A stretch of 21,302 nucleotides of DNA from a virus. The stretch is taken from IMG/VR virus record IMGVR_UViG_3300022562_000787, positions 1-21,302 of that record, one strand, 5' to 3'. A program made the position numbers and the translations under genes. Shown one piece after another: positions 7,705-20,886 of this stretch. Every line of letters starts with the position of its first letter. Position 1 is the stretch's first letter. The notes under the pieces were generated by a model. It was not told the origin of the DNA, searched no databases, and was given only the letters and a program-made list of their open reading frames with translations.

Positions 7705-9495
7705 TCAACACACAATACCCTTATAGAGCTGCCTGTCCACCGGCTCGGCGTAGAGCAAAATCCCACGGACTCGGCAAAAGCCCTTGATGGTGATCCTAAG
7801 CTGGAACTGGTATCCCAAGTTCGCAGGCCTGCCCGTGTTGCAGTCCGCGCATTCCTGAGGCGGCTTGGGCAGAACCATGTTGGTCTTGTAGCATTCCCCG
7901 TATTGGGTCAGGGGATAGCTGATCGGGTTGGCGTAGTCCTCCGCGCTGTTGCGGGGCGTGCAGGCTTTCCAGCGATGCCACAGCAGCCAGCAGCCTTGGA
8001 AGTCCGGGCGATACTCGACCTGAAACTGAACCGTCCCGAACAGGCGATCCACCCCCAGCTCGGCGGTCAGCAGCCTCTTGAGGTCAAGCTCCTGCCCCCA
8101 TGTGAACGCCGGGGTCTCGATGATCCAAGTCACCCGACCATCCCCATTCTCCCTCTGGTTGTCCCTCGTCAGCTCCCAGAGCTGGATATTGCCAGCTTCC
8201 CGGGAATAGATAACTCCGAAAGCCCTTTCTCTTCCGCCGAAATCCCCAACGAAAAGCTGGAGGAAATCCAAGCCTTCGTGCATCCCTTCCCAGTTTGGCT
8301 CCTTGGTCTTGTTGAAGCTGTTGATGGGAACGAAGTCCATCGGGATCAAGGCTGAGTGAGCGACCCCTACCGCTGTCTCGAATGGCAGCGCCGTCATGAG
8401 CAACCGGTTGTCGAATACGATGCCACTGGCGGCGTATAGGAGCGCACGGTTGTTGAACTGAAGGATTCTTTGCTCGTTTGAGCTGATTTGAATGTTTCCC
8501 CATTGGTTGAAGTAACGGATGGCTTGAAGCAGGGATCGGATTCCCGGCTCCAGCGATTGGTAGAACAAGTCACCATTGGCGGCAACAACAGACCTGTCAT
8601 TGACCGAACCATTCACCAGCTGAACCACGGTCATCAGTGGCTGATTGTTGTTGGTCGCCGCAATCCATTCCGTGCGAGTCACCGGAGCGTTGATCGCATA
8701 TACGGCCTTGCGTGTGAACGCGAAGAGTCGCCCCTGACCAAGGGACGCATCAAGGTTGGCGCTATGCTTGAGAGCCCGGATCGCGCCGTCATTGGATGGG
8801 ACAGTGAAGCCGTCACCGCCAATGGCTAAAGGATTCTCGGTGACATACAGCACCGAGTCGCGAAGCCCGTAGGCTGGCGAGCCGGAAGGGCCGAGCACGA
8901 TGTCTCCCGCCGTGACCTGCCTGCCACGGGCATACCACAGGCGGCCCATGAAGTAGTCCATTGGGCCAGCCGGGGGAATCTGGTTGCAGTTCGGACTGCC
9001 CGGAGTTGCGTCCCCGGTGATGCCGCGAGACCGGCTCAGCGTGACCCCGTCCCAGATCAGGGGATTGGTGACGCCGTCTCCGGCCTGAACGACCATGAAC
9101 TGCTCGGCTTGGGCGAAGAAGAAGATGGGCTGGCTGGCGGGATGAAAGTAAATAGGGTCCGAGCTCAGGGCTGTCAGCTGCCCCGTGGTCATGTCCTGAC
9201 GATACAGGACTCCACCCAGAGCATGGATGAGATAGGGATCCCCGCTGTCCGGGTAGTAGAAAGCCCCTCCCTGATACAGGGCGCTGCCTTCGGCCATGTC
9301 CCCAATCGGCTGCCAGCCATACCGTTGCGTGATGCCTCCATCGCGCACCGTGGCATTGTCCAGCCAAGCCAGCTGGTTTCGCTGTAGCCCGTTTGGAACT
9401 CTCTCGCTGGCAACGGTCGTCACCTTCAGCGAGTCCACACCGCCGCTGAAGTCCATGCTGCCGTCAACCCTTATCAAGCTGTTTGAAGATGGCAT
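7705..9495 (-). CDS. Stopper / tail-tube-like structural protein (596 aa)
   Basis: The start is the ATG at 9495 (MPSSNSLIRVDGSMDFSGGVDS), with AAGGA 4 bases upstream. An in-frame ATG at 9543 would overlap the divergent terminase start and has no ribosome site. The sequence is beta-rich, with repeated propeller-like strands (GALYQGGAFYY, VLYRQDMTTGQLTAL, FMVVQAGDGVTNPLIWDG, GRLFAFTRKAVYAINAP) and the N-terminal 'dfsgGvds...N(Q)L.wldNa..RdGgi..R.Gw' opening. That opening and length fit phage proteins of the P22 gp10 / T7 gp12 kind, which close the portal channel and form the tail hub. The C-terminal 100 residues are Cys-rich (CWLLW, ECADCNTG, terminal Cys). The family role is inferred from length, fold pattern and position. 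Confidence 0.8.
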   Translation of the reverse strand: MPSSNSLIRVDGSMDFSGGVDSLKVTTVASERVPNGLQRNQLAWLDNATVRDGGITQRYGWQPIGDMAEGSALYQGGAFYYPDSGDPYLIHALGGVLYRQDMTTGQLTALSSDPIYFHPASQPIFFFAQAEQFMVVQAGDGVTNPLIWDGVTLSRSRGITGDATPGSPNCNQIPPAGPMDYFMGRLWYARGRQVTAGDIVLGPSGSPAYGLRDSVLYVTENPLAIGGDGFTVPSNDGAIRALKHSANLDASLGQGRLFAFTRKAVYAINAPVTRTEWIAATNNNQPLMTVVQLVNGSVNDRSVVAANGDLFYQSLEPGIRSLLQAIRYFNQWGNIQISSNEQRILQFNNRALLYAASGIVFDNRLLMTALPFETAVGVAHSALIPMDFVPINSFNKTKEPNWEGMHEGLDFLQLFVGDFGGRERAFGVIYSREAGNIQLWELTRDNQRENGDGRVTWIIETPAFTWGQELDLKRLLTAELGVDRLFGTVQFQVEYRPDFQGCWLLWHRWKACTPRNSAEDYANPISYPLTQYGECYKTNMVLPKPPQECADCNTGRPANLGYQFQLRITIKGFCRVRGILLYAEPVDRQLYKGIVC

Positions 9496-9541
9496 CTTAT
9501 CCTTGCACGCACTGTCAACTAGACATAGTGTTTCCGCAAGC

Positions 9542-11434
9542 ATGTATTACAGTAAGCCGTCCAAGAAATCCACCGGACAGTTTGAGCGATACAACCTCCA
9601 GTGGATGAAAGATTCGCCAGATTGGTTAATAGAGCTCACCATGATCGCCAAGGGTGGGAAGTGGACGAAGTCCAACGGAGAGGAAGCTGGCAAGGGGCTG
9701 TTCTTCCATTACCGCAGGTTTCAGGAGATCGTCTGGCCCGGAAGGCTATGGGAAAGCGGACCCTTCAAGAATCACTGGGCCGAGGCCTGCCTTGAGAATT
9801 GGATCAACCACACTTATCTGGGCGTCATGGGCTGCGCGGGAAGCGGCAAGAGCGACAGCTTTGGCAGCATCGCCCTGACCGAATGGTATGCCCGATCCAA
9901 GGGGACGACCGTCCTCGTCTCCTCCACCGACCTGAAATCCCTTGAGCTCCGCATCTGGGGCATGGTCAAGAAGTATCACAAGCTGGCCAAGGAGAAGTGC
10001 CCAAGCCTGCCGGGGCATCTCATTGAGGGCAAGCAGATGCTGGTGCTTGATCCAAGGGAAGAGGCCTCGGAGGGGCGCGACTTCAAGAACGGGATCATCG
10101 CCGTGGCCTGCAAGCGGGGAAGCCAGTTCGTCGGGCTGGGGTCCTACATCGGGATTCACAACACTCGCGTGCGCCTGATCGGGGATGAAATGAACCTCAT
10201 GCCCCGTGGGTTTCTCGACTCCATCTCCAACCTGTCCAAGTGCGAAGACTTCAAGTTCGTCGGTCTAGGCAATCCCAACGAGACGACCAACGCCCACGGC
10301 GTCCTCTGCGAGCCTCACCCCGACCTTGGGGGATGGGACTCCGGCATAGACCAGCAGCCGGGAACGAAGACATGGAAGACCAAGTTTCCCAACGGAATCG
10401 CCTTGCAGCTGCCCGGGAGCGATACGCCCAACAAGAACGCCCCGGAGGATGTCGAGCCTCCGTTCCCGTTCCTCATCACCATGCAGCAGATGAAGAACGA
10501 TGCCGAGATATGGGGAGTGGATGACTGGCACTACACCATGATGAATGAGGCCCGGATGCCCAGAGGGCAGGGCAGCCGTCGCGTCATCACCCACCAGATG
10601 GCCAAGCAGTTCGACGCCTTCGAGCGTCCCCTGTGGCGGGACAGCAGGCGCACGTCCATCGCCTTTCTGGACGCGGCCTACCGGGGAGTGGGCGGGGATC
10701 GCTGCGTCTTTGGAGAGCTGGTCTTTGGCTTTGAGGCCTCTCAGGAGGCCAAGGCGGTGGACAGCTCCGGGCTGGTCTATCGGGACTCCGGCAACTCGGA
10801 TGGCAGGATGATCCTGCATCTGGTTGACGTTCTAATCATCCCGGTCAAAGGGGATCGGGCGGCCACATCCCCTGAGGACCAGATCGTCCAATTCGTGAAG
10901 GAACAGTGTGATCGCCGGGAGATTCCACCCCAGAACTTCTTCTTCGACTCCGGCATGAGAACCTCTCTGGTCACGTCCTTCTCGCGCCTGTGGAGCCCGA
11001 TGGTGAACTCGATTGACTGCGGCGGCAGGCCGTCCGAGAACTGGGTCTCCGCTGATATTCAGAAGACCTGCCGGGAATACTACGACCGCAAGATCACCGA
11101 GATCTGGTTCACCGTCAGGCTGATCGTGGAGTCGGGCCAGTTCCGGGGCATGACCTTCTCGGTCTGCAATGAGTTTGCCCAGCGGGAATGGAAGACCACG
11201 ATGGGAAACAAGATCTCAGTCGAGACCAAGGAGGAGATGAAGGAGAAGTGCGGGAAGTCTCCCGACTTGGCCGATGCCGTGGCCATAGGCTGTCACGGGG
11301 CGCTCCAGCGCGGGTTCGTCATCAAGCGAGCCCGAAAGGAAGATAACCGGATTGTGCACGAACGCTGGAAGACCGAACTGATTGAAAGAGCCCGGAAGCT
11401 TCACGCCTCCGGGTCTCTGAATTTCAACGCTTGA
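9542..11434 (+). CDS. terL: Terminase large subunit (TerL, 630 aa)
   Basis: This is the ATPase-nuclease that cuts and pumps phage DNA into the procapsid through the portal. Visible motifs: Walker A GCAGSGKS (97-104); Walker B RLIGDE (211-216, catalytic Glu 216); a coupling-type GNPN (243-246); and the RNase-H-like nuclease acidic residues at FLDAAY (D377), FFFDSG (D469) and SPDLADA (D575/D578). Length and motif order are complete. The ATG at 9542 is chosen because earlier in-frame starts lie antisense inside the neighbouring structural gene; no strong Shine-Dalgarno is seen. It is the only plus-strand gene: divergent from the stopper-like gene across 46 bases, and convergent with the small basic protein gene, overlapping it by 11 bases. 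No small terminase subunit is recognisable nearby. Confidence 0.97.
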   Translation: MYYSKPSKKSTGQFERYNLQWMKDSPDWLIELTMIAKGGKWTKSNGEEAGKGLFFHYRRFQEIVWPGRLWESGPFKNHWAEACLENWINHTYLGVMGCAGSGKSDSFGSIALTEWYARSKGTTVLVSSTDLKSLELRIWGMVKKYHKLAKEKCPSLPGHLIEGKQMLVLDPREEASEGRDFKNGIIAVACKRGSQFVGLGSYIGIHNTRVRLIGDEMNLMPRGFLDSISNLSKCEDFKFVGLGNPNETTNAHGVLCEPHPDLGGWDSGIDQQPGTKTWKTKFPNGIALQLPGSDTPNKNAPEDVEPPFPFLITMQQMKNDAEIWGVDDWHYTMMNEARMPRGQGSRRVITHQMAKQFDAFERPLWRDSRRTSIAFLDAAYRGVGGDRCVFGELVFGFEASQEAKAVDSSGLVYRDSGNSDGRMILHLVDVLIIPVKGDRAATSPEDQIVQFVKEQCDRREIPPQNFFFDSGMRTSLVTSFSRLWSPMVNSIDCGGRPSENWVSADIQKTCREYYDRKITEIWFTVRLIVESGQFRGMTFSVCNEFAQREWKTTMGNKISVETKEEMKEKCGKSPDLADAVAIGCHGALQRGFVIKRARKEDNRIVHERWKTELIERARKLHASGSLNFNA

Positions 11435-11627: not shown

Positions 11628-12187
11628 CAGAACGAGCTCCCCTTCTCGTCAATCACCTTCGTCAGTGACTTTACGCGCTCATAGACCATCTCCAGAGATT
11701 TCACGTCCTGAACGCAGTGGTGGACGATGTAGTCCAGACTCTTGCTGTCCCCGTCCATCGCGGCCTGTAGCCAGTGACGGAACTCGACGTGGGTCTTGTC
11801 CTCTGGGATGTCTAGGAAACGGATGAGCTCTTGAAGGCTGTTCCTCGCCAGCCGCATGTGACGCCGAGCCAGCAGCACGGGGTCAATGAACTTCGCAAAG
11901 CGGAGGGCAACAGGTTGGTGGTATTTGAGCGCCCAAGAGACCAGCATGGGCTTGTCGAATCTCTGCCCGTTGTGGGCTACGTAGATGTCGTAATCGGAGA
12001 GTTGCTTGATGACTTCGGCGACAATCGCACTGGGATCACTCCTACGCTTCTTCCAGTTGGGAAACTCGTCCGCTCGGATGACCAAGGGCTGTTCCTTTGA
12101 ACCATAGGTCTTGTAAGCGCAGCATAGGAGGATCCCGGTATTCGCCGACAGAGAGAACGTCTCTAGGTCGAATATGCAGGTTTTCAT
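11627..12187 (-). CDS. DEDD-family 3'-5' exonuclease, RNase H-like (186 aa)
   Basis: The start ATG overlaps the stop of the upstream gene by one base (TAATG), giving MKTCIFDLETFSL. The three exonuclease motifs are present: Exo I with DxE (FDLET, D7 and E9), Exo II (YVAHNGQRFD, N73 and D78) and Exo III (HHCVQDV, H156-x4-D161). It is a single compact domain like the proofreading exonuclease of family B polymerases or the RNase_H_2 family of predicted exonucleases. The His at the general-base position suggests the DEDDh type, though the 'HCVQD' arrangement also resembles the Tyr-type loop. It acts on DNA or RNA 3' ends with two metal ions. No polymerase is nearby; its place among lysis and packaging genes is unusual. 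Confidence 0.88.
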   Translation of the reverse strand: MKTCIFDLETFSLSANTGILLCCAYKTYGSKEQPLVIRADEFPNWKKRRSDPSAIVAEVIKQLSDYDIYVAHNGQRFDKPMLVSWALKYHQPVALRFAKFIDPVLLARRHMRLARNSLQELIRFLDIPEDKTHVEFRHWLQAAMDGDSKSLDYIVHHCVQDVKSLEMVYERVKSLTKVIDEKGSSF

Positions 12188-12729
12188 TAGAACTTCCAGA
12201 ATACGCCAAACCGATGCTGGGGGCCGGAGAAGCTTGACCAATACTCCACGTCATAGACCACACCGGCGTGCTCGTTGAACCTGATCCCGAGCCCCGCGCC
12301 AGCGATGCCTACGGCGGTGGTATTGTCCTTGCCTCTTCCGCTGATCGGAGTTGCGATTCCTCCAAACCCGAACGGGGTCGCTTGGATTTTTCCCATCAGA
12401 AGGATTGGAGCCTGTAACTGGACGCTGCCGGAGGGCAGCCAGATGTCTCCATTCACGTAGTCCATTCGCATCACCGTGACGACGTTGGGATTGATGGCGT
12501 AGCCGATCCCAATGCCAGCACCAAAGCTCTCGGTGTCGTTGCAGTAGATCCCGTAGGGAGCCACATACCAGTTGCTCGCCGTGTTGCTGAGGAAGCTCAG
12601 GACGATGCCCGGGATTTCTGGCAGCGTGGGCGGCTGGTTGGTGGAGGTCTCCGGGGGTGGAGCGTTTGTTTGTGAGTAACCCGCGAAACAGAGCATCGCG
12701 GCCATCAGGATACCAGCTATTTTCTTCAT
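12187..12729 (-). CDS. Exported outer-membrane beta-barrel-like protein (180 aa)
   Basis: A Sec signal peptide is clear: MKKIAGILMAAMLCFAGYSQ, with cleavage probably after AGYS or nearby. A Pro/Thr-rich linker (about 22-43) follows. The rest is alternating hydrophobic/polar strands separated by Gly/Asn turns (NWYVAPYGIYC, FGAGIGIGYAI, AGAGLGIRF, AGVVYDVEYW), ending in RFGVFWKF. The terminal Phe with alternating aromatics fits the beta-signal used by the BAM machinery, so an eight-or-so-stranded outer-membrane barrel is likely. It overlaps the upstream holin-like gene (ATGA). Phage-encoded outer-membrane proteins elsewhere can alter the infected cell's surface, for example by blocking superinfection; that role is inference here. 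Confidence 0.8.
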   Translation of the reverse strand: MKKIAGILMAAMLCFAGYSQTNAPPPETSTNQPPTLPEIPGIVLSFLSNTASNWYVAPYGIYCNDTESFGAGIGIGYAINPNVVTVMRMDYVNGDIWLPSGSVQLQAPILLMGKIQATPFGFGGIATPISGRGKDNTTAVGIAGAGLGIRFNEHAGVVYDVEYWSSFSGPQHRFGVFWKF

Positions 12730-13037
12730 TGGGTTTGATGTGTGGTGTTGTGTCTCATTTCTTGGTGTTTGACGTATTCAGTGACTACGTAACCACCGAG
12801 AGCGACGCAGAGCATGACTATCGCTGAGATGATAGCTGTCTGCCAGATCATCATGGTTCTCTCCTTGCGGGTTCGGTCTGATTCGCTGACGGCAATCTGC
12901 TTCTCCACCTCGACAATTCGCTCGGTGAGCCCGTTCATAACCCGGGCCTCCAGACGTTTGAAGTCTGAGTGCATTTCACCCAGTTTGTCATCTATGGCCT
13001 GAAATCTGACAATGATGGCTTCGTCATCGCGTGGCAT
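12726..13037 (-). CDS. Coiled-coil, single-TM membrane protein; holin/XhlA-like (103 aa)
   Basis: The ATG at 13037 overlaps the upstream stop by one base (TAATG), giving MPRDDEAIIVRFQAI. Residues about 5-60 form a charged coiled coil (IDDKLGEMHSDFKRLEARV...EVEKQI), followed by a basic KER and one membrane helix (MIWQTAIISAIVMLCVALGGYVV, about 64-86). A short hydrophilic tail follows. The architecture of coiled coil plus C-terminal membrane helix is that of XhlA-type lysis-accessory proteins and some holin partners. A second membrane protein with two helices is encoded 0.7 kb upstream, so the two could work as a pair in lysis. Function is inferred from topology only. Confidence 0.72.
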   Translation of the reverse strand: MPRDDEAIIVRFQAIDDKLGEMHSDFKRLEARVMNGLTERIVEVEKQIAVSESDRTRKERTMMIWQTAIISAIVMLCVALGGYVVTEYVKHQEMRHNTTHQTQ

Positions 13038-13723
13038 TAGTTGTCTCCAAATTTGATCCTGAAGAACCCGTTGGTAAACGTGATCCAGTTGGTGCTGGTC
13101 ACGTCCTGCGTCCATTGAAGATAGACGTTATACAGGCTGGCAGGAGGGTGCGGGATCGAAAAAACAAGCTGGTCTGACAAGACGCTCTCGACGCCGTTGG
13201 AGGGGTAGTATGCAGTGGCTCTGACGTAGTAAGTGTTTGGAACGACCTGATCCAGCGTGGCGGTCAGGTTGGTTCCCGCGCCAACAATGATGGGGGATGC
13301 CAGCTTGTTGGTTTCGGAAATCGAATTCGTGGCAGCATAGAGTCGGTATTCCACACCCGGAGAAGGTGATGGATCCCACTGGATCTTGACCTGAGTCTGG
13401 GCGTTGGAGCTGAAGACAGAAAGCAGCATGAGAATCGGAATGCAGATCGCAATACCGAATTGGTTGATCCGCTTGTGAATGGTTGATCTTCCCATTCCCA
13501 ACTCTTGAGCTGCGCCAGCGATTGATCCAGTTCTTTTCACAGCTTCGACGATAGCCTCGTTCTTCATTTTGTCTATAGCACTAAGGGCCTTTTTACATTC
13601 TTCTTCAACCGGGGGAAAGATCTTGCACCGCTGCCGAAGCACTGCGTTGTCAGCTTTTAAGGCCTTCAACTCAAGCTCTCTCAGCTTTTCGAGCTCTTCT
13701 CTAAAATCAAACGGAAGGTCCAT
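13037..13723 (-). CDS. Fis-type HTH fused to signal-like helix and fibronectin-III-like domain (228 aa)
   Basis: One uninterrupted frame. Residues 1-50 are charged helix (LEKLRELELKALKADNAVLRQ). Residues about 53-90 are a Fis-type helix-turn-helix (AIVEAVKRTGSIAGAAQELGMGRSTIHKRINQFGI). A hydrophobic stretch (IAICIPILMLLSVFSS) follows, ending in SNAQ, a likely signal-peptidase site. The remainder is a fibronectin-III-like domain opening VKIQWDPSPSPGVEYRLY and closing TNWITFTNGFFRIKF. A DNA-binding domain joined to an exported domain is odd. An in-frame ATG at 13495 (residue 77) would give a classic signal peptide, so the gene may have two products. The first ATG has only a weak GGGA site. The fibronectin part resembles exported proteins of Verrucomicrobiota. 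Confidence 0.75.
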   Translation of the reverse strand: MDLPFDFREELEKLRELELKALKADNAVLRQRCKIFPPVEEECKKALSAIDKMKNEAIVEAVKRTGSIAGAAQELGMGRSTIHKRINQFGIAICIPILMLLSVFSSNAQTQVKIQWDPSPSPGVEYRLYAATNSISETNKLASPIIVGAGTNLTATLDQVVPNTYYVRATAYYPSNGVESVLSDQLVFSIPHPPASLYNVYLQWTQDVTSTNWITFTNGFFRIKFGDN

Positions 13724-13756: not shown

Positions 13757-14026
13757 TCAAGTATTATCTGAAATGGAATCTCCGGTGACTGGCGGCTTGC
13801 CGCTGACGATGTTGCTGATCGTCCGGTCAAGGAAGGCGCACACCACACCGGCAATGGAGGAGACGACTCCGCACACGGTAATGAACTGCTGGGTTGGATT
13901 GAGGACTCCCCACTCCAAACCATTCATGGCCGTGCTGAAGGTGGAGACACCCACCACGATGGAATAAGAAGCCAGCCTGACGATGGCCAGCCTCCATACA
14001 AACGCCTCCTTGAACCACCGGCTCAT
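13757..14026 (-). CDS. Small two-helix membrane protein, holin-like (89 aa)
   Basis: The ATG at 14026 overlaps the upstream stop (ATGA), giving MSRWFKEAFVWRLAIVRLASYS. It has two hydrophobic helices (about residues 12-34, LAIVRLASYSIVVGVSTF, and about 45-68, FITVCGVVSSIAGVVCAFL) separated by a short polar loop, and a soluble C-terminal tail. Size, two-helix topology and its place among late genes fit a class II-type holin, which would permeabilise the inner membrane at lysis. There is no visible endolysin beside it to confirm this. A longer frame to 14083 runs into the upstream gene and begins with Arg-rich sequence, so it was not used. Confidence 0.72.
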   Translation of the reverse strand: MSRWFKEAFVWRLAIVRLASYSIVVGVSTFSTAMNGLEWGVLNPTQQFITVCGVVSSIAGVVCAFLDRTISNIVSGKPPVTGDSISDNT

Positions 14027-14745
14027 ATATCTCCACCGTAGAAGTTGTCGTAGGCCGTTTCGGATGCGTTGCCTTGGAAGCATTCGATTCCCAGATAGTT
14101 GCCGGTGTCCACGGCGCTGGCTCCCGGATCAGCGGTGAAGCTTGCCTCCGGGGTGGTATCCCCACTGTCCCATTCGTCCGCTGCCACAGGGCGGGTCGCG
14201 GTCGGGTTTCTCCAGCATCGGATCACCGTGCTGGCCCCGGTTCCGGTGATGGTAATTCCCCAGATGTCCCCCGAAGCGACCGTCGTTCCGATGTTCTCGA
14301 TGGTGCTGCCGGAGGTATCCGCCATGTTGGCCAGATACTGCCACCAGATGTTTCCACCCGTGTTGAACTGGACCGCGTAGTAGTGTGTCGAGTCATTCGT
14401 AAATCGAAGAACGACTTCGGCATACGACGTTGCGGTCAGGGTGGCAAGAGTGACTCTCACATACTGTTCAACGGTGTCGCAGGCGGTGGCCGTATAGATA
14501 GACGTGTCCTTGCCGTATGCTGCTGTGTTCGGAACAGCCTGATTGGAGGCGATGTTGATCTGGCCGGAGTTGGCCGACCAGTTGGCTCCAAGGCTGGAGG
14601 AGTCAGCCCGATTGAAGTCGTCAGAGAAGTCCTGTCCGCTGGGCGCTGCGGCTGGGGGTGGTGCGGGAAAGAACGAGGTGATCCTGAGCTGCGAGGGCGC
14701 AGCCACAGCGAAGAGGCACGCGAGAATGGTGAGCATCTTTTTCAT
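14023..14745 (-). CDS. Exported concanavalin-A/LamG-fold protein (240 aa)
   Basis: The ATG at 14745 overlaps the upstream stop by one base (TAATG). The N-terminus is a signal peptide (MKKMLTILACLFAVAAPSQ) followed by a Pro/Ala-rich linker (about 27-36). The body begins FSDDFNRADSSSLGANWS and ends AYDNFYGGDI. This start-and-end pair is typical of concanavalin-A-like (LamG/DUF1080-type) jelly-roll lectin domains in phage fibres and secreted bacterial proteins. It is likely to bind carbohydrate. A cleavable signal is unusual for a virion protein, so it may be displayed on or secreted from the host cell. Confidence 0.78.
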   Translation of the reverse strand: MKKMLTILACLFAVAAPSQLRITSFFPAPPPAAAPSGQDFSDDFNRADSSSLGANWSANSGQINIASNQAVPNTAAYGKDTSIYTATACDTVEQYVRVTLATLTATSYAEVVLRFTNDSTHYYAVQFNTGGNIWWQYLANMADTSGSTIENIGTTVASGDIWGITITGTGASTVIRCWRNPTATRPVAADEWDSGDTTPEASFTADPGASAVDTGNYLGIECFQGNASETAYDNFYGGDI

Positions 14746-15791
14746 TACCAGTATCCATTAAAAACAGCCTGAGTCACAATCCCCTGTATGGCGCTGACCC
14801 CCAGCTCGGCCCAAGTCCCGTTTGTCACGGTCACGGTCGTGCTGTTGGTGAACCCGGAGACATACCAGTCGGCGGGGACGGTGATGGTTCGATCCGCCCC
14901 GTTGGCGTTCAGCTTGATGACCTGCCAGTTGTCCTCGTTTGCGTTCATGTTCTGACAGCCTGTGATTGTCCAGTTGCCTGCCAGATTGGTGATGGCCACA
15001 TGACCTTTGGCGAAATCAACATTGGCGTTTCCGAGACTGTTCGTTCCCTGACGGAAGAATCCAGAGTATGCGGAGGCGGTTACGCCGGTCACATCCATGA
15101 CGAACGGAGCATCCCAAGGTGCGCTGGTGGACTGCCAAGAGAGCGCAGAGAGAGTCTGGGTGATTTTAACGTCGTCTCCTCCGTTGTTGTCTTGGAACTG
15201 AACCCCCTTCAGGATGGGATTGGTGATGATGGTGTTGGGAACCACGTTGGTGGTAATGAAGGACTGCACCGCAGTCAGCGCGGATCCGTCTCCAGAGAAG
15301 GTTCCATAGACCGTTCCCCCAAAGTCGTGTCGAGTTCCGTAGTGAAACGTTCCAGTGTTCGACAGTTGAAGGTAGCTGTTGGCTGAAGGATCCACCACCA
15401 GCGTTCCATATCCTCGCACGGCGTTGAACACCAAGTTGCTTCCACTGTCCAGAATCATCACGTTGTTGGAGTTCACAATAATTCTGTTCCATCCATTCGT
15501 GTCACGAACCACAACGCTCTGCCCGTCGTTGACGAAGTTCGTATCTCCCGCCGCTGCGCCGGTGGCCGCGATGCCGAATCGCCTGCCGTCCGCGTTGGTG
15601 GTGATGGCGATGCTGGCGTCGGCGGGATAGACGGCGGCGGCATTGCTGACACCGCTGGCGTCCCCGACAAAGTCAGGCGAGAACCCGCCCCCAACGAACT
15701 TCCCCTTGAACAGCGTGCCGGAGGCGGCCAGAAGCACGGTGACGAATCCGATCAGGAATACGACGGCTAGGAATTTTGCGATTGATTTCAT
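14745..15791 (-). CDS. Fibre-like beta-structured protein with N-terminal signal/anchor (348 aa)
   Basis: The ATG at 15791 (MKSIAKFLAVVFLIGFVTVLL) follows the upstream stop (TAATATG). The first 30 residues form a basic then strongly hydrophobic segment, either a signal peptide or a membrane anchor. The body is Asn/Thr/Gly-rich beta sequence with DASGVSNA, short strand repeats (VMILDSGSNLVFNAVRGYGTLVV) and FSGDGSALTAV, a motif common in phage tail-fibre beta-helices. The C-terminal 90 residues (NWTITGCQNMN...FNGYW) resemble a fibre tip. Probably a tail fibre or exported adhesin. The 417-aa longer frame begins in unlikely Arg/Pro-rich sequence antisense to nothing, and was rejected. Confidence 0.78.
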   Translation of the reverse strand: MKSIAKFLAVVFLIGFVTVLLAASGTLFKGKFVGGGFSPDFVGDASGVSNAAAVYPADASIAITTNADGRRFGIAATGAAAGDTNFVNDGQSVVVRDTNGWNRIIVNSNNVMILDSGSNLVFNAVRGYGTLVVDPSANSYLQLSNTGTFHYGTRHDFGGTVYGTFSGDGSALTAVQSFITTNVVPNTIITNPILKGVQFQDNNGGDDVKITQTLSALSWQSTSAPWDAPFVMDVTGVTASAYSGFFRQGTNSLGNANVDFAKGHVAITNLAGNWTITGCQNMNANEDNWQVIKLNANGADRTITVPADWYVSGFTNSTTVTVTNGTWAELGVSAIQGIVTQAVFNGYW

Positions 15792-15792
15792 A

Positions 15793-16056
15793 TTAGTGCC
15801 AAGCTCCATCATACCAGATCCACTGGGTTGCAGGTGTCGTTGATGTGTCATAGGCGAGCGCCACGTCAGACGTGGGTGTCCACGTCGGGTTTCCCCCGGC
15901 GTAGTCTCCAGCCTGACCCTGCACAGCACTCGTTCCACTCCCGGCAGTCGAAATTCGATTGAGCAGGGAGATGACAAGCAGGTCTGTAAAGCTGCCACCG
16001 AAACACGAGAAGCACTTGGCTTCCTCGATCAGGGCTTGTATCTCAGCTGATGTCAT
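15793..16056 (-). CDS. CxxC-G module protein, single motif (87 aa)
   Basis: Residues 1-36 are a helical CxxC-G module (AEIQALIEEAK-CFSCFG-...LLVISLLNRI, Cys 15 and 18), the same module found in three other proteins downstream of the capsid gene. After a Gly/Ser/Ala linker, the C-terminal 35 residues (DVALAYDTSTTPATQWIWYDG) look like the small beta end-domain of phage fibre proteins. It starts 43 bases after the upstream gene with only a weak ribosome site. The N-terminal module probably docks it to the virion or to partners carrying the same module; this is inference. Confidence 0.8.
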   Translation of the reverse strand: MTSAEIQALIEEAKCFSCFGGSFTDLLVISLLNRISTAGSGTSAVQGQAGDYAGGNPTWTPTSDVALAYDTSTTPATQWIWYDGAWH

Positions 16057-16099
16057 AGCGCACTCTAGTCAATTTGTTCAATATCTGCAACCGAAACCG

Positions 16100-16825
16100 T
16101 CAGGATAGCTTTCGGAACAAAACCTCGGACAGGTATAGGTTTTGAACCAGAGGCCATCCGGCCACAAATGTGTTTAAGGCTCCGTCGGCGACCTGATTTA
16201 CAGCGAGGGAAGCCGATGAGTTGGAATACCTTGTGCCGCCTCCACCGATGTAGGTGTTTATAGACGCAGTGGCCAAAGCCACGGTGGCTTCGTTCATAGC
16301 ATCCTCCAACACAGACCTCTCCTCGATGTCCAGAAACCCGCTGACCCCCTCGCAAGTGACGTGGGAGACGGTGATAAGCGGACCCACAACCTGAAAATCA
16401 ATGATGTGAATCGTCCTGACTGAGGACGGATCAGTCGAGAACAGGGCTGTGGAAATGGCCGGGGCCGAGTTGGTGATGGTCGTCCCGATCTTCTTGGACA
16501 TGTTCCAAGACGTGGACCAGTAGGGGGTTGCGGCAACCGTGTAAACGTTGTAATTGAATCGCCGAATTCCAACAAAGTGCTCGGTCTGCCACGACAGCGG
16601 GCCGTTGGTGATCCCGGAGTCGGGAGTCGTCATCAGGCCCATGTAGCACTGGGTATCCCACAGATTGAGGGCGTTGAAGTCATCGGCGGCCCACCGCCAG
16701 CCAATGCGGATATTGCTCCATGACGCTCCGAGATCCAGCTTCGCCGCCCACTGGGAATTGCTCTGACTCAGCCTCTTTTCCTGAGGCTCAAACGGCATGG
16801 GAAGATCTACGATGGAGGTGCTCAT
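16100..16825 (-). CDS. Tail-fibre-module protein, tandem paralogue B (241 aa)
   Basis: The ATG at 16825 overlaps the upstream stop (ATGA). It is clearly homologous to the gene just upstream: both share W-A-A-(K/S)-L-D, IRIGWRWA, C/A-YMG near the N-terminus, and YIGG(G/A)GTRYS, A(D/V)GALN near the C-terminus. The long middle is beta-rich with no recognised family. Position among fibre and CxxC genes suggests a virion or adhesion protein, perhaps a subunit of a hetero-oligomer with its paralogue. The upstream extension to 16879 overlaps the paralogue and is unlikely. Confidence 0.78.
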   Translation of the reverse strand: MSTSIVDLPMPFEPQEKRLSQSNSQWAAKLDLGASWSNIRIGWRWAADDFNALNLWDTQCYMGLMTTPDSGITNGPLSWQTEHFVGIRRFNYNVYTVAATPYWSTSWNMSKKIGTTITNSAPAISTALFSTDPSSVRTIHIIDFQVVGPLITVSHVTCEGVSGFLDIEERSVLEDAMNEATVALATASINTYIGGGGTRYSNSSASLAVNQVADGALNTFVAGWPLVQNLYLSEVLFRKLS

Positions 16826-17523
16826 GTGACGATGGCGACAAGGATTTCTTTGAAGTTGATCGCGCTGGTTTCCTCCCAAGCCACGGTCACGGCATTGAGG
16901 GCTCCATCCACACCCTCATCCACGGCAACAGAGGCCCCGGTGGTGGAATAGCGAGTCCCGGCCCCGCCGATGTAAGCGTTGAGCCCTGTCTCGATGAACG
17001 GCACCGGACCCAACAGGGTGTTCGTCAAGGGGGCCAAGTCGGCGATGTCCACCAAGGCCGCTGAGCCACGGGCGAAGAGATGGTTGATCGTGTAGTTCGG
17101 CGCTCCCTTCACAATCTCGGTGATGTGAACCGTGTTGATCGTGCTGGGGGAGGCGGAAAGAAAGGTGGCGGTCACTCCGGGGATGGCTGAAGTGATGGTC
17201 GCTCCCACCTTTTTGCAGACCCGGAAGGATGGAACGTAGTAGGTCGGTGGCCCAGCAGTCCGGGCGGCCGTCCCGATCCGGTAGCTTCCGACGTAGTGCG
17301 TGCAGGTGGCCAGCAAGGGGGATTCCGCTAGTCCGGCAGTGGGGTTGGACAGGACGCCCATGTAGGCCTGAAGGGCGGCGAGGTTGGCCCCGGTGTCGTT
17401 GACAGCCCAGCGCCATCCGATCCTGATCCGGTTCCAGCCGGTGCCCACATCCAGAGAGGCGGCCCATGCGTCGTTGCTGATCGCAAGTCGCTTGTCTCCG
17501 ATGCTGACGATTTCAACACTCAT
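16822..17523 (-). CDS. Tail-fibre-module protein, tandem paralogue A (233 aa)
   Basis: The ATG at 17523 overlaps the upstream stop (ATGA); no good Shine-Dalgarno, so translation is probably coupled. It aligns along its length with the following gene: WAASLDVGTGWNRIRIGWRWA, an YMGVL(S)NP segment, SAxPS...HI, and YIGGAGTRYS near residue 190. Unlike its partner it has only two cysteines. The unusual IRIGWRWA tract is conserved between the two, which suggests a shared fold or binding role. No family recognised. A structural/adhesion role is inferred from the surrounding genes. Confidence 0.78.
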   Translation of the reverse strand: MSVEIVSIGDKRLAISNDAWAASLDVGTGWNRIRIGWRWAVNDTGANLAALQAYMGVLSNPTAGLAESPLLATCTHYVGSYRIGTAARTAGPPTYYVPSFRVCKKVGATITSAIPGVTATFLSASPSTINTVHITEIVKGAPNYTINHLFARGSAALVDIADLAPLTNTLLGPVPFIETGLNAYIGGAGTRYSTTGASVAVDEGVDGALNAVTVAWEETSAINFKEILVAIVT

Positions 17524-17888
17524 GATACGTAAATGGTTCCATATCCCGTCACACTGGATCCGGGAGTCCCTCCGGCGTATGCGCCCACGGAGTAGTCCTC
17601 GAAGGTGTCACCAATGAGCGACGGGTTGTTGCCCACATACAGGGCGGTGAACAGGGTTCCTGCCAGCGGCATGGACGTGTCGTAGCTGCCCACGTCATAG
17701 CACTCAAAGGTGGTTCCGCCTCCGTCCGCAAAGGCGGTCACGGCGCACAGCGCGGCGTTGAACGTCACGCCGTTGGTGGCGATGTCCTGAACCTGACTGA
17801 TCGTGATGGTCTCGGCCAGCGAGAACATGCCGAAGCAAGCCAGACAGCTGGCATCGGAAAGGATTTGCTGGAGCTCCTGCTTGGTCAT
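17520..17888 (-). CDS. CxxC-G module protein with beta C-terminal domain (122 aa)
   Basis: The ATG at 17888 overlaps the upstream stop (ATGA) and has a strong GGAGG site 5 bases upstream. Residues 1-37 are the CxxC-G module (QELQQILSDAS-CLACFG-..., Cys 15 and 18). The rest (about 40-122) is Gly/Thr/Tyr-rich beta sequence with GGGTTFECYDVGSYD and a final GYGTIYVS, unlike the C-terminal parts of the other module proteins. It appears to be a small fibre or tip protein whose N-terminal module anchors it; its function is not known. Confidence 0.8.
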   Translation of the reverse strand: MTKQELQQILSDASCLACFGMFSLAETITISQVQDIATNGVTFNAALCAVTAFADGGGTTFECYDVGSYDTSMPLAGTLFTALYVGNNPSLIGDTFEDYSVGAYAGGTPGSSVTGYGTIYVS

Positions 17889-18856
17889 ATCTGCCTCCCC
17901 AATGCAGTTTGGAAGGTCTGCCAGTCAGCGGCGAAGGCTTGATATTCAGAAAAGGTCATCCCGATTCCAACAGTTAAACTGGCAAGGTTGGCATTTGTCA
18001 TGTGCGGCCCACCACCCGCGTTCATGTCCAGCACGTAAAATTCTGAATTGCCGACTAGGCTGGAAAGATTTGCCGCCGTTTGTTCTGTGGTGTAGTAGTT
18101 CCGTTTCGTGGATCCGTCGGTTCGTGCTGCCATCATAAGGCCCAACCCAACATTGTTGAAGGTGCTGAGATTCCCATCGTTGACCATCGTCCGAACCTGA
18201 GTTGTGCCCGTTCCGTTTCTTGTCCCTATAAGAAGCGCAGCCCCGCAATACCACATCAAAATAGTTCCTTTTGTCCTTAAATAGTGGGAAACGTGGCCTG
18301 AGTTCTGAGTGATTTGCCCGGATGTTCTTGGAATATAATGCGTGTTACCGTAGCCGGTTGCCCCGTCACCCGTGATCCCGTTGGCATCATGCGTGACGGT
18401 GCCATTCCAAGTGATGGTGAAGTCGCCGGGGGATTTCAAGTTGATGCTATGAGCCGTCGCGTTTCCACCGACAAACGGATAGATCAGGTCGCACTTGTCC
18501 CACCAGCCGTGGTCAACCGCCGAAGTGACCAGATTTCTAATGGCGGAAACCTGCGTGGAGTCGGTGATGCCGGTTGCGGAAAGGAACGCCAGAACGGTCT
18601 GACCGGAGGTGGAGAGCCAGAAGGAGATCTCGCTGAGCAGGGAAAGCCTCAGCACGTCGAACGCCTTCATTCCGTAACACGCCAGACACTTTCCATTTTC
18701 GGTCAACGCAGCCAGCGATGTGTCTGCGCTGGGATAGACGCTCAACAGCCAATCTCGATAGAGCGCCAACTCCACAAGCTTCGGCATGGAAATGCCAAGG
18801 CAGGCGTAGCATCGAACTCCATTGAGGAGGGATTTGATGTCATCAGTGGTTATCAT
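17885..18856 (-). CDS. Tail fibre: two CxxC-G modules plus lectin-fold head (323 aa)
   Basis: The ATG at 18856 overlaps the upstream stop (ATGA). Residues 1-82 carry two CxxC-G motifs (Cys 16/19 in CYACLG, Cys 57/60 in CLACYG) and match the whole of the neighbouring 81-aa protein. From about residue 120 there is a typical phage fibre domain: DKCDLIYPFVGGNATAHSIN, then an NLKSPGDFTITWNG motif and GYGNTHYIP. It continues to a C-terminal TFSEYQAFAADWQTFQTALGRQ segment. This is the pattern of concanavalin-like receptor-binding domains seen in many phage tail proteins. It probably binds the host surface, with the N-terminal modules as anchor. Confidence 0.85.
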   Translation of the reverse strand: MITTDDIKSLLNGVRCYACLGISMPKLVELALYRDWLLSVYPSADTSLAALTENGKCLACYGMKAFDVLRLSLLSEISFWLSTSGQTVLAFLSATGITDSTQVSAIRNLVTSAVDHGWWDKCDLIYPFVGGNATAHSINLKSPGDFTITWNGTVTHDANGITGDGATGYGNTHYIPRTSGQITQNSGHVSHYLRTKGTILMWYCGAALLIGTRNGTGTTQVRTMVNDGNLSTFNNVGLGLMMAARTDGSTKRNYYTTEQTAANLSSLVGNSEFYVLDMNAGGGPHMTNANLASLTVGIGMTFSEYQAFAADWQTFQTALGRQI

Positions 18857-19098
18857 GTGGTCACGGCAATAATCATATCCAGCAGGACGATCTCCATGAT
18901 CTCGAACAGGCTTAGCCCGTAACAGGCTAGGCAGTCCCCTTGAGACATGATGTTGGCCAGCGACACGTCGGCGGTTGAGTCAAGCGTCAGCAGCCACGTC
19001 CTCAGGTAGGACAGCTTCAACAGTTGGCCGATGGTCAGGCCAAGACAGCTGTAACAGTTGACCTCGGAAAGAGCGGTTTGCACTTCGGCGGCGGTCAT
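18853..19098 (-). CDS. Stand-alone double CxxC-G module protein (81 aa)
   Basis: The ATG at 19098 has GAGGT 5 bases upstream. The whole protein is two CxxC-G units: Cys 15/18 in CYSCLG and Cys 56/59 in CLACYG, each followed by a short amphipathic helix (LLKLSYLRTWLL; IMEIVLLDMII). It matches residues 1-82 of the next gene but has no head domain. Four Cys in two CxxC pairs could bind a zinc ion or form disulfides. It might be a base or adaptor on which the module-bearing fibres assemble; this is inference. It lies 2 bases after the small capsid-adjacent gene. Confidence 0.82.
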   Translation of the reverse strand: MTAAEVQTALSEVNCYSCLGLTIGQLLKLSYLRTWLLTLDSTADVSLANIMSQGDCLACYGLSLFEIMEIVLLDMIIAVTT

Positions 19099-19100
19099 AG

Positions 19101-19331
19101 TTACCTCATCAGATCTGAGACTTCCTCGTCTATTTCGTATTCCTCACTTCCAGAGTAAGACACCAGAACGGAGTCGTCTCGGACGGAAGTGACCTTGACC
19201 TCGCACACATCTCCGGGCTTGACCTTCTTATCAGACGGAAAGAAGGACATGGGGAGAATGGCGACGTTGGAGTCGGTTCCTGCCGGTTCCTCTCTGGGCT
19301 CGGCAGCCTCTTGATCGGGATAGTCAGCCAT
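19101..19331 (-). CDS. Small acidic capsid-adjacent protein (76 aa)
   Basis: The start is the ATG at 19331 (MADYPDQEAAEP); the only longer frame uses a TTG. A GGAAAGAG purine run precedes it. The first 25 residues are acidic and disordered-looking. Then comes ILPMSFFPSDKKVKPGDVCEVKVTSVRDDSVLVSYS, an OB/S1-like beta pattern. The 'LPxSFF...KPGDxCxVxV' pattern is one I associate with small proteins of unknown function found beside major capsid genes in podovirus-like phages. It sits just after the capsid terminator and just before the CxxC genes. It may be a capsid cement or assembly factor; not established. Confidence 0.8.
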   Translation of the reverse strand: MADYPDQEAAEPREEPAGTDSNVAILPMSFFPSDKKVKPGDVCEVKVTSVRDDSVLVSYSGSEEYEIDEEVSDLMR

Positions 19332-19419: not shown

Positions 19420-20886
19420 TTAGACGATTGGGCCGTCCTCATCGCCGGTTGGAACACCAGTCCCATACACACCGTCAGGAGCAGGACAATCGGGCGGAGC
19501 CGAACTGTAGCTCTGAGACGGATAGCCGGGATCCGTGCTGCAAACGTCAATTTCGGGGATGCAGAAGAGTTCCCGCTTGTGGATGTAACCACGGAGGAAC
19601 TCGTAGTGCTTGGGCCGAACCCAATACTTGAACCACGCACCGAATTGACCCTTGTTCTCCCACTTGTTCGAGATCGGGTTGCCGCTTGTATCGGCTCCCA
19701 AGTCGTGCATGAGGAAGCGCCATTTCCCGCCGAAGTCTCGGTGGGCGAACGGCATATCCGGGTTGATCGGACGGGCGTCCGGGACGAGCAGCTCAAGGCC
19801 GTTGACGTGCCATTGATAGCTGATGGCGAACTGGGCATTGTCGTAATCGGTGTTAACGTTCGCGCCAATACCAGCCGCACCGCCAGCACCCGTGGTCGTC
19901 TCGTTCACAAACGGAAGGACGATCTGGTAGCGATACCGATTGCCGTTTCCGCCGTGTGCACCGGCACCCAGATCCGTGACGTAGTTGAACCGGAGTCCCA
20001 GTTCGTCCACGCGGACTTGGTAGTTACCGATCTGGCCCGAGAACCCATAGCGCCAATACTGATTGGCCGCGTCCCATTGGGTGAAGCGCCAGTTGGACGT
20101 GACGTTCGGGTTGTTCCCGCCGCCGACACCCAGCTGACCGCCCAGCTTGTCGAGGAACCAACACGTATCCATGTCGGTGACAAGCTCGATGTAGGGCAAC
20201 GTCTCCTTGAAGGGATTCTTGCCCCCGTAACCCTCACGCATGGAGCGCGAGTAGTTGTTCTGCAACATCTGAGGAACGAGGTGGTAGATGTCGGTCGGGC
20301 TCGCAGAGCAATCGAAATAGATTTCGTCGTCTGAAGTGCCGTCGCCATCCAAGTCCACACTCACCCACTCATAGGTGAAAGCAGAGAGCAACGAATTGGC
20401 AATCTGCTTGTATTTGGCCCAGAACAAACCACGCTTCCGGGCGAATGCCGAGAAGATGTTCTGCGTATTGGGCCGCAGGATGTTGTTGATGATCTGCGAG
20501 AGATGCTGTTCCGCGTGCGTGACGTGCATGAGCTGGTCATAGCAGAAGAGCGGGGTCTCGTAGGTGATTTCCTCAGCGTAGTAGGTCAACCGATCCGCGC
20601 CCCAACCAATCTGGCTGGACGGAGGATCACAGGGGTTGCCGGTGCAGCCGGGACCTGAAACAGGAACCCGACGCCACGCCTTGGTGGTGTTGGCCCACAC
20701 CGAGCGGAAGCGGTCCTGCGTAATCTCAGCAGGAGTCCCAAGGGGTGCGGTGCCGGTGGAGATGTGGCCGATCCAGCCATCTGTGGGCCGGATATCTTCC
20801 ATAATCATCTCGTCGAAGCGCGGAGTCTCATCCACTAGGAATTGAGCAAAGTCACACGCTGCCAATGTGCCGTCTGGGCAACTCAT
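19420..20886 (-). CDS. Probable major capsid protein (488 aa)
   Basis: The ATG at 20886 has AAAGG 8 bases upstream. The N-terminal part (MSCPDGTLAACDFAQFLVDE) is followed by aromatic, Gly-rich mixed sequence with GPGCTGNPCDPPSSQIGWG at about 78-95, then a helix-rich part (LMHVTHAEQHLSQIINNILRP) and a long beta-rich C-terminal half. No prosite-type motif is visible. The call rests on length, on an upstream scaffold-like tail, on its own promoter/leader and terminator, and on a small capsid-adjacent gene next door. Ten cysteines are present, high for a capsid protein. A different abundant virion protein is possible but less likely. Confidence 0.82.
   Translation of the reverse strand: MSCPDGTLAACDFAQFLVDETPRFDEMIMEDIRPTDGWIGHISTGTAPLGTPAEITQDRFRSVWANTTKAWRRVPVSGPGCTGNPCDPPSSQIGWGADRLTYYAEEITYETPLFCYDQLMHVTHAEQHLSQIINNILRPNTQNIFSAFARKRGLFWAKYKQIANSLLSAFTYEWVSVDLDGDGTSDDEIYFDCSASPTDIYHLVPQMLQNNYSRSMREGYGGKNPFKETLPYIELVTDMDTCWFLDKLGGQLGVGGGNNPNVTSNWRFTQWDAANQYWRYGFSGQIGNYQVRVDELGLRFNYVTDLGAGAHGGNGNRYRYQIVLPFVNETTTGAGGAAGIGANVNTDYDNAQFAISYQWHVNGLELLVPDARPINPDMPFAHRDFGGKWRFLMHDLGADTSGNPISNKWENKGQFGAWFKYWVRPKHYEFLRGYIHKRELFCIPEIDVCSTDPGYPSQSYSSAPPDCPAPDGVYGTGVPTGDEDGPIV

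What the first reader, a model, noticed from the sequence alone, without database searches (positions are those of the whole stretch)
15793..19098. Six-copy CxxC-G module used as a common N-terminal domain in four fibre-region proteins
The motif C-[FLY]-[SA]-C-[FLY]-G, preceded by a short helix and followed by an amphipathic helix, occurs once in the proteins at 15793-16056 and 17520-17888, and twice in those at 17885-18856 and 18853-19098. In all four proteins the first Cys is at residue 15 or 16. The C-terminal parts differ completely: none, a small beta end, a different beta domain, or a lectin-type head. This looks like a shared docking module with interchangeable heads, plus a stand-alone double module that could be the base. 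Four-Cys versions could hold zinc, and two-Cys versions could dimerise. I know no named family for it.
Basis: partly seen in the sequence, partly recalled or inferred. Interest (0 to 1): 0.8.

Follow-up and report, generated by a model that had tools for sequence, protein, structure and literature searches.

The report
Phage hairpin module carrying interchangeable heads
The repeated cysteine motif is a real, previously unnamed small helical building block that one large group of uncultured phages places at the front of many unrelated surface-type proteins, probably to plug them into a common platform on the virus particle; the cysteines look like optional clips rather than zinc holders.

Summary
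Six CxxC-G modules lie in four neighbouring proteins: D 18853-19098 (two), C 17885-18856 (two), B 17520-17888 (one) and A 15793-16056 (one). They define a domain family absent from Pfam and NCBIfam, with no convincing PHROGs match, and not found in 50,697 phage records. In uncultured relatives it is nearly universal: 64 of 69 further putative-capsid relatives pass the threshold, and 4 of the other 5 carry cysteine-poor versions. Reversed and shuffled controls gave zero hits. All module proteins lie just downstream of the putative capsid gene, on its strand. About 50 of 80 loci have one module-only protein (2, 3 or 5 modules), never two; other proteins carry 1-5 N-terminal modules before at least 17 unrelated C-terminal parts. 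AlphaFold2 gives D a confident all-helical fold (pLDDT 93.8) without Foldseek relatives. Zinc is not supported: cysteines are lost in pairs and some modules have none. A second cysteine pair brackets whole arrays of 1-5 modules, suggesting disulfide staples. Best reading: an N-terminal assembly/docking module that gathers swappable adhesin-type heads on a module-only platform. It works like T4gp10-type RBP adaptors but no homology was found. Position on the virion and the binding itself are unproven.

The parts
18853..19098 (-). Protein D, 81 aa, module-only double module (proposed platform)
   Evidence: ORF; two module hits E 1.8e-7 and 1.5e-6; AlphaFold2 pLDDT 93.8, pTM 0.80
18982..19098 (-). 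Module 1 of D (CxxC codons 19045-19056)
18856..18975 (-). Module 2 of D (CxxC codons 18922-18933)
17885..18856 (-). Protein C, 323 aa: double module + beta-rich head; start overlaps the D stop by 4 bases
   Evidence: ORF; modules 5.4e-9 and 3.5e-7; head matches phrog_26223, E 1.2e-9, and Sinorhizobium / Flavobacterium phage proteins
18737..18856 (-). Module 1 of C (CxxC codons 18800-18811)
18611..18730 (-). Module 2 of C (CxxC codons 18677-18688)
17888..18607 (-). C-terminal head of C: two helices then low-confidence beta-rich domain
17520..17888 (-). Protein B, 122 aa: one module (17775-17888, CxxC codons 17835-17846) + 84 aa C-terminal part; 4-base overlap with C
   Evidence: module E 3.2e-4
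15793..16056 (-). Protein A, 87 aa: one module (15940-16056, CxxC codons 16003-16014) + small C-terminal domain ending in YDGAWH
   Evidence: module E 2.5e-10; tail domain shared with module proteins of several relatives
19101..19331 (-). Small acidic protein between putative capsid gene and module cluster (conserved position, similar proteins in L013, L014, L016, L142, L154)
19420..20886 (-). Putative major capsid protein (488 aa), the syntenic anchor used to find relatives
   Evidence: inferred from position and conservation; no family or PDB match; relatives
16100..17523 (-). Two proteins without modules between B and A (16822-17523 and 16100-16879) that resemble each other by eye; possible partners
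   Evidence: no significant family match

Best explanation
The motif marks a ~38-residue helical module (short helix, CxxC turn, amphipathic helix) that serves as an N-terminal assembly or docking domain. In each phage a module-only protein of two or more tandem modules forms a platform. One to four other proteins start with the same kind of module and carry unrelated, exchangeable C-terminal parts (lectin-like, LRR-like, FN3-like, small beta domains), which display binding functions on the virion. Platform and heads assemble through module-module contacts. The tip cysteine pair and, in many lineages, a second pair at the two ends of the module array act as optional disulfide staples. SHOWN here: module family, tandem arrays, head swapping, synteny, cysteine pairing statistics, predicted fold of the C and D modules. 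INFERRED: virion location, binding between module proteins, disulfides, receptor-binding role of the heads.
For: Family: 359 domains at E<1e-3 in real ORFs, 0 in reversed or shuffled ones. Synteny: 210 of 210 module proteins on the putative capsid gene's strand, first one a median 405 bases downstream; in whole records nearly all matches sit in that one cluster. Universality: 64 of 69 extra putative-MCP relatives; of the other five, L108, L142, L154 and L155 have Cys-poor modules and L117 is cut short. Architecture: 49 of 80 loci (50 with the window's D, missed at threshold) have exactly one module-only protein of 2, 3 or 5 modules; 125 proteins have a C-terminal part; nearly all first modules start within 8 residues of the start codon. 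At least 17 head clusters, including LRR_5 (3.8e-6) and fn3 (7.5e-9). Fusions: arrays and heads in one ORF in L009, L011, L101, L121. Within a genome, head modules resemble each other (mean identity 0.57 against 0.30 between genomes) and base-head pairs are closer than between genomes (0.43 against 0.29). Fold. Cysteine coupling.
Against: No experiment or complex prediction shows the module proteins touching each other or being in the particle. The putative capsid protein has no database match, so its identity is inferred. About 30 of 80 loci lack a separate module-only protein (most have tandem arrays fused to a C-terminal part instead). In 18 of 45 cases a head module's closest head relative is in another genome. 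C's head model is poor.
Confidence: 0.62

Rival explanations
1. Head-fibre / capsid-decoration reading: the modules bind the capsid lattice directly, like the tandem N-terminal domains of phi29 gp8.5, and the proteins are capsid-surface fibres rather than tail receptor-binding proteins; module-only proteins are cement proteins.
For: Genes lie directly behind the putative capsid gene; phi29 gp8.5 has two similar N-terminal barrel domains, six of which form a pseudo-hexagonal base on the capsid, followed by a fibre (PMC6542822). It is compatible with the docking idea and differs mainly in what is docked to.
Against: gp8.5 base domains are beta-barrels, these modules are predicted helical. One to five modules per chain do not suggest one fixed lattice site.
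Confidence: 0.35
2. Homo-oligomerisation only: each module is an N-terminal oligomerisation or folding element of its own fibre, and the module-only protein is an independent small virion protein.
For: Single-module proteins are the commonest class (81 of 125 proteins with a C-terminal part); phage fibres commonly oligomerise (general knowledge).
Against: Does not explain why nearly every locus also has a tandem array, why arrays and heads are fused in some genomes, or why the second cysteine pair is nearly all-or-none per genome (42 all, 35 none, 3 mixed).
Confidence: 0.2
3. Zinc (or iron) site: four cysteines of two modules bind a metal and hold modules together.
For: CxxC pairs are typical metal half-sites; 268 of 297 modules have both Cys.
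Against: CxxxC spacing in 90 modules; 13 two-module proteins with only one Cys pair and 6 with none; L112 has one tip Cys in every module; L154 modules have none. Loss in one module does not drag the partner module along.
Confidence: 0.08

Closest known systems
T4gp10-like adaptor / branching domains of receptor-binding proteins (K1-5 gp37, G7C gp66, CBA120 TSP2/TSP4)
   Same: N-terminal modules let several receptor-binding proteins with different enzymatic or binding parts share one attachment system; modules can occur in more than one protein of a phage (PMC6872550, PMC11721090).
   Different: No sequence or Foldseek similarity was found; here the module is a ~38-aa helical unit, tandemly repeated 1-5 times, with a module-only protein, and the same unit on platform and heads rather than a domain plus a short conserved peptide.
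phi29 head fibre gp8.5
   Same: Tandem similar N-terminal domains followed by a C-terminal fibre (PMC6542822); gene next to the capsid gene (from memory for phi29).
   Different: gp8.5 base is beta-barrel and a single protein; here helical modules are spread over several proteins with unrelated heads.
T7 gp17-type N-terminal anchor domains
   Same: Conserved N-terminus with exchangeable distal part.
   Different: Those anchors are about 150 aa or more and single-copy; the modules here are ~38 aa, repeated and shared by several proteins; no family match was found.

Membership tests
T4gp10-like RBP adaptor/branching domain | sequence or fold similarity to T4 gp10 domains 2/3 | tested here: not met
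   No Pfam, PHROGs or NCBIfam match for the window modules; PDB profile search and Foldseek without significant match
T4gp10-like RBP adaptor/branching domain | shared N-terminal element on several proteins with different distal domains | tested here: met
T4gp10-like RBP adaptor/branching domain | experimentally shown hetero-complex of the proteins | not testable with these tools
   no multimer prediction or biochemistry available
phi29 gp8.5-type head fibre | N-terminal beta-barrel base | tested here: not met
   AlphaFold2 model of D is all-helical, pLDDT 93.8
phi29 gp8.5-type head fibre | binds capsid at quasi-threefold sites | not testable with these tools
   only gene adjacency is known
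zinc-binding CxxC module | four ligands kept together | tested here: not met
   two-module proteins with one pair (13) or no pair (6), and modules without tip Cys
Tim10/DDP-type twin CX3C hairpin | family profile match | tested here: not met
   only E=0.04 in one relative, below the curated cut-off

The most novel reading that the evidence does not exclude
The modules of all module proteins of a phage, from platform and heads alike, join end-to-end through one common interface into a mixed ring or chain. Peptide linkers join modules within a chain, and in many lineages a cysteine pair (start of the first module, end of the last) covalently links one chain to the next, giving a mix-and-match adhesin collar. 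Closure of each array on itself into a small alpha-hairpin ring is the competing reading of the same cysteine rule.
Probability: 0.22. Interest if true: 0.8.

Novelty: new variant of a known kind. Interest (0 to 1): 0.62.

Why it matters
It identifies a small, portable assembly domain used by a whole lineage of uncultured phages without any isolate in the collections searched, and it turns a set of otherwise unannotatable genes into recognisable platform and head proteins. Module profiles would let one list candidate receptor-binding proteins in these phages from sequence alone. The cysteine bracket rule, which holds for arrays of 1 to 5 modules, makes a specific and testable prediction about how the assembly is held together.

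Tried and rejected
Named families: Pfam, PHROGs and NCBIfam gave no match for the window modules; weak hits of relatives (zf-Tim10_DDP 0.04, MOZART1 0.019, phrog_17094 1.7e-4 with no stretch passing on its own) were rejected as below cut-off or too short. Isolated phages: no tblastn match for four module proteins, the putative capsid or the portal-like protein. Bacterial genomes: alignment-derived patterns gave no confirmed relative, and six pattern hits contain no module by profile, so no host was found. Foldseek of D against PDB and BFVD: nothing at E<=0.001. Foldseek of C against PDB: nothing significant; lectin-like sandwiches are among the noise and the model is too poor to use. Zinc was tested through cysteine loss patterns and rejected as a general property. 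A scan with alignment A4 failed for lack of conserved stretches. Most apparent exceptions to the cysteine bracket rule turned out, on reading, to be arrays whose last degenerate module the profile had missed or cut short; L019, L106, L119 and L130 remain exceptions. Two literature searches for this specific module system found nothing relevant.
Full report
OBSERVATION. Proteins D, C, B and the following gene overlap by four bases each (18853-18856, 17885-17888, 17520-17523), suggesting a translationally coupled unit (direct reading). The invariant columns of the six copies are Cys, Cys, Gly. D and the first part of C are 40% identical along both modules.

CONTEXT. The window is a virus record. 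A longer contig, 99.8% identical over 12.4 kb (L005), shows upstream a 789-aa portal-like protein, a 443-aa scaffold-like protein and then the 488-aa protein I call the putative major capsid protein (MCP). These names rest on gene order and sequence character only: none of the three has a significant Pfam, PHROGs, NCBIfam, phage-record or PDB-sequence match where tested. A terminase-like protein on the other strand resembles Streptomyces phage terminases (E about 6e-6).

FAMILY. The putative MCP found 21 further contigs (60-73% identity), and a profile of more distant copies gave 80 loci (some already known) down to 33% identity. A module profile, iterated from the window and first relatives, found modules in 64 of 69 further contigs. 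Of the other five, L117 ends soon after the MCP, L142, L154 and L155 carry two module-like repeats each that are nearly or wholly free of cysteines, and L108 has modules without the tip pair (read partly by eye, since profile E-values there are weak). In controls on 27,770 ORFs the profile gave 359 domains at E<1e-3, against zero in reversed and zero in shuffled sequences. All 210 module proteins lie on the MCP strand, the first one a median 405 bases behind it. Whole-record searches found nearly all modules in that single cluster. No module was found in 50,697 phage records, and none was confirmed in bacterial or archaeal genomes.

ARCHITECTURE. After removing near-duplicates there are 80 loci, 176 proteins and 298 modules. 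Forty-nine loci have a module-only protein (2, 3 or 5 modules), never two. The window's D adds one more: its second module fell just below the later profile's threshold (E 0.072) although it scores 1.5e-6 with the earlier profile. Modules nearly always start within 8 residues of the start codon. In the first 30 or so contigs the C-terminal parts form at least 17 unrelated clusters, among them BspA-type LRR (L022, 3.8e-6) and fn3 (L010, 7.5e-9). The head of window protein C belongs to a domain that also occurs at the C-terminus of Sinorhizobium phage phiM12's 775-aa protein annotated with a partial GDSL lipase domain, and of a protein next to the portal gene of Flavobacterium phage FL-1. A's small C-terminal domain (ending YDGAWH) recurs in module proteins of several relatives. 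In L009, L011, L101 and L121 a long module array and a head are one protein, which suggests that the separate proteins act together.

FOLD. AlphaFold2 on D with 35 related double modules: pLDDT 93.8, pTM 0.80, all helical, with the same helix / short CxxC helix / 17-residue helix pattern in both halves. In C the same pattern appears with block pLDDT of about 82-90 over most of the two modules, while the head is mostly below 50. Neither PDB nor BFVD has a significant structural match for D.

CYSTEINES. Of 297 distinct modules 268 have both tip cysteines, spaced mostly by two (176) or three (90) residues. They are lost together more often than expected (Fisher p 6e-13; after 60% redundancy reduction 4e-9). 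Thirteen two-module proteins keep the pair in one module only, and six in neither. A second pair exists in roughly half of the family: one Cys just before the first helix of an array and one after the LL near the end of its last helix. The two behave like an opening and a closing bracket around the whole array. One module: 51 both, 26 neither, 6 one only. Two modules: 19 as '(..)', 17 as ' ', 31 none, 6 other. The same bracket occurs around arrays of 3, 4 and 5 modules (p about 1e-15 for one and for two modules separately). Most exceptions vanish when degenerate last modules are read by eye. On a tree of the putative MCPs, independent pairs of rows agree in direction 9 to 0-1 for tandem arrays (median p 0.02) and 6 to 0 for single-module proteins (median p 0.03), so shared descent alone does not explain it. 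The two pairs look largely independent of each other (tip Cys 1 against end Cys, p 0.6), although tip Cys 2 against the N-terminal Cys gave p 0.01. Presence of the second pair is nearly all-or-none per genome: 42 all, 35 none, 3 mixed; the corresponding base-head test on the tree has too few pairs to be significant (4 to 0, p 0.125). The window's own proteins have only the tip pair.

INTERPRETATION. I read the module as an N-terminal assembly or docking unit. The platform is the tandem module-only protein (D in the window), and A, B and C are its clients with exchangeable heads. Head modules within a genome resemble each other (0.57 against 0.30 between genomes), as expected if they share one partner, but not always (27 of 45 have their closest head relative in the same genome). 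The cysteines look like disulfide staples that stabilise the assembly and can be dispensed with. Whether the second pair closes each array on itself or links neighbouring chains cannot be decided from sequence. Zinc is unlikely as a general mechanism.

COMPARISON. Functionally the nearest systems are adaptor and branching modules of receptor-binding proteins (T4gp10-like; PMC6872550, PMC11721090) and, by gene position and tandem N-terminal domains, the phi29 head fibre gp8.5 (PMC6542822). The module is a member of neither by sequence or fold as tested. Head versus tail location remains open.

LIMITS. All relatives are metagenomic contigs, host unknown; no metagenome scan was available. Library searches cover only described families. 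Counts depend on profile thresholds and are lower bounds for degenerate modules. The module profile was seeded with window copies, and several cut-offs and groupings were chosen while looking at the data, so the p-values are descriptive. Treating the 488-aa protein as the capsid is an inference.

Noticed in passing
window 14745-15793, 14023-14745, 12187-12729 (all -): Three proteins downstream of the module cluster, two of them lectin- or fibre-like, begin with what look like signal peptides (MKSIAKFLAVVFLIGFVTVLLAASG, MKKMLTILACLFAVAAPSQ, MKKIAGILMAAMLCFAGYSQ). Relatives L142, L154 and L014 show the same just after the module genes, which is odd for virion proteins.
   Followed up: no
window 9296-11434 (+) against 7705-9543 (-): The terminase-like ORF is on the opposite strand to the structural genes and, from its first ATG, overlaps the 612-aa ORF antiparallel by about 250 bases; its real start is probably further in.
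   Followed up: no
window 13037-13723 (-): A single ORF joins a Fis-like helix-turn-helix N-terminus, a hydrophobic segment and an FN3-like C-terminus; either an unusual fusion or two overlapping genes with an internal start.
   Followed up: no
window 16100-16879 and 16822-17523 (-): Two adjacent module-free proteins inside the cluster look like paralogues (shared RIGWRWA..D and KK.G.TIT segments); possible partners of the modules.
   Followed up: no
L005 3747-9679: Portal-like, scaffold-like and capsid-like proteins of this lineage have no match among isolated phages or protein families where tested, so the whole group appears to lack a cultured representative in the collections searched.
   Followed up: partly
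window 19101-19331 (-), and L013, L014, L016, L142, L154 behind the capsid gene: A small acidic protein with a recurring core (LP.S.F......KPGD.CEVKV) sits between the putative capsid gene and the module genes.
   Followed up: no
L011 2927-5485: One 853-aa protein carries about five modules followed by two tandem copies of the same head domain.
   Followed up: partly
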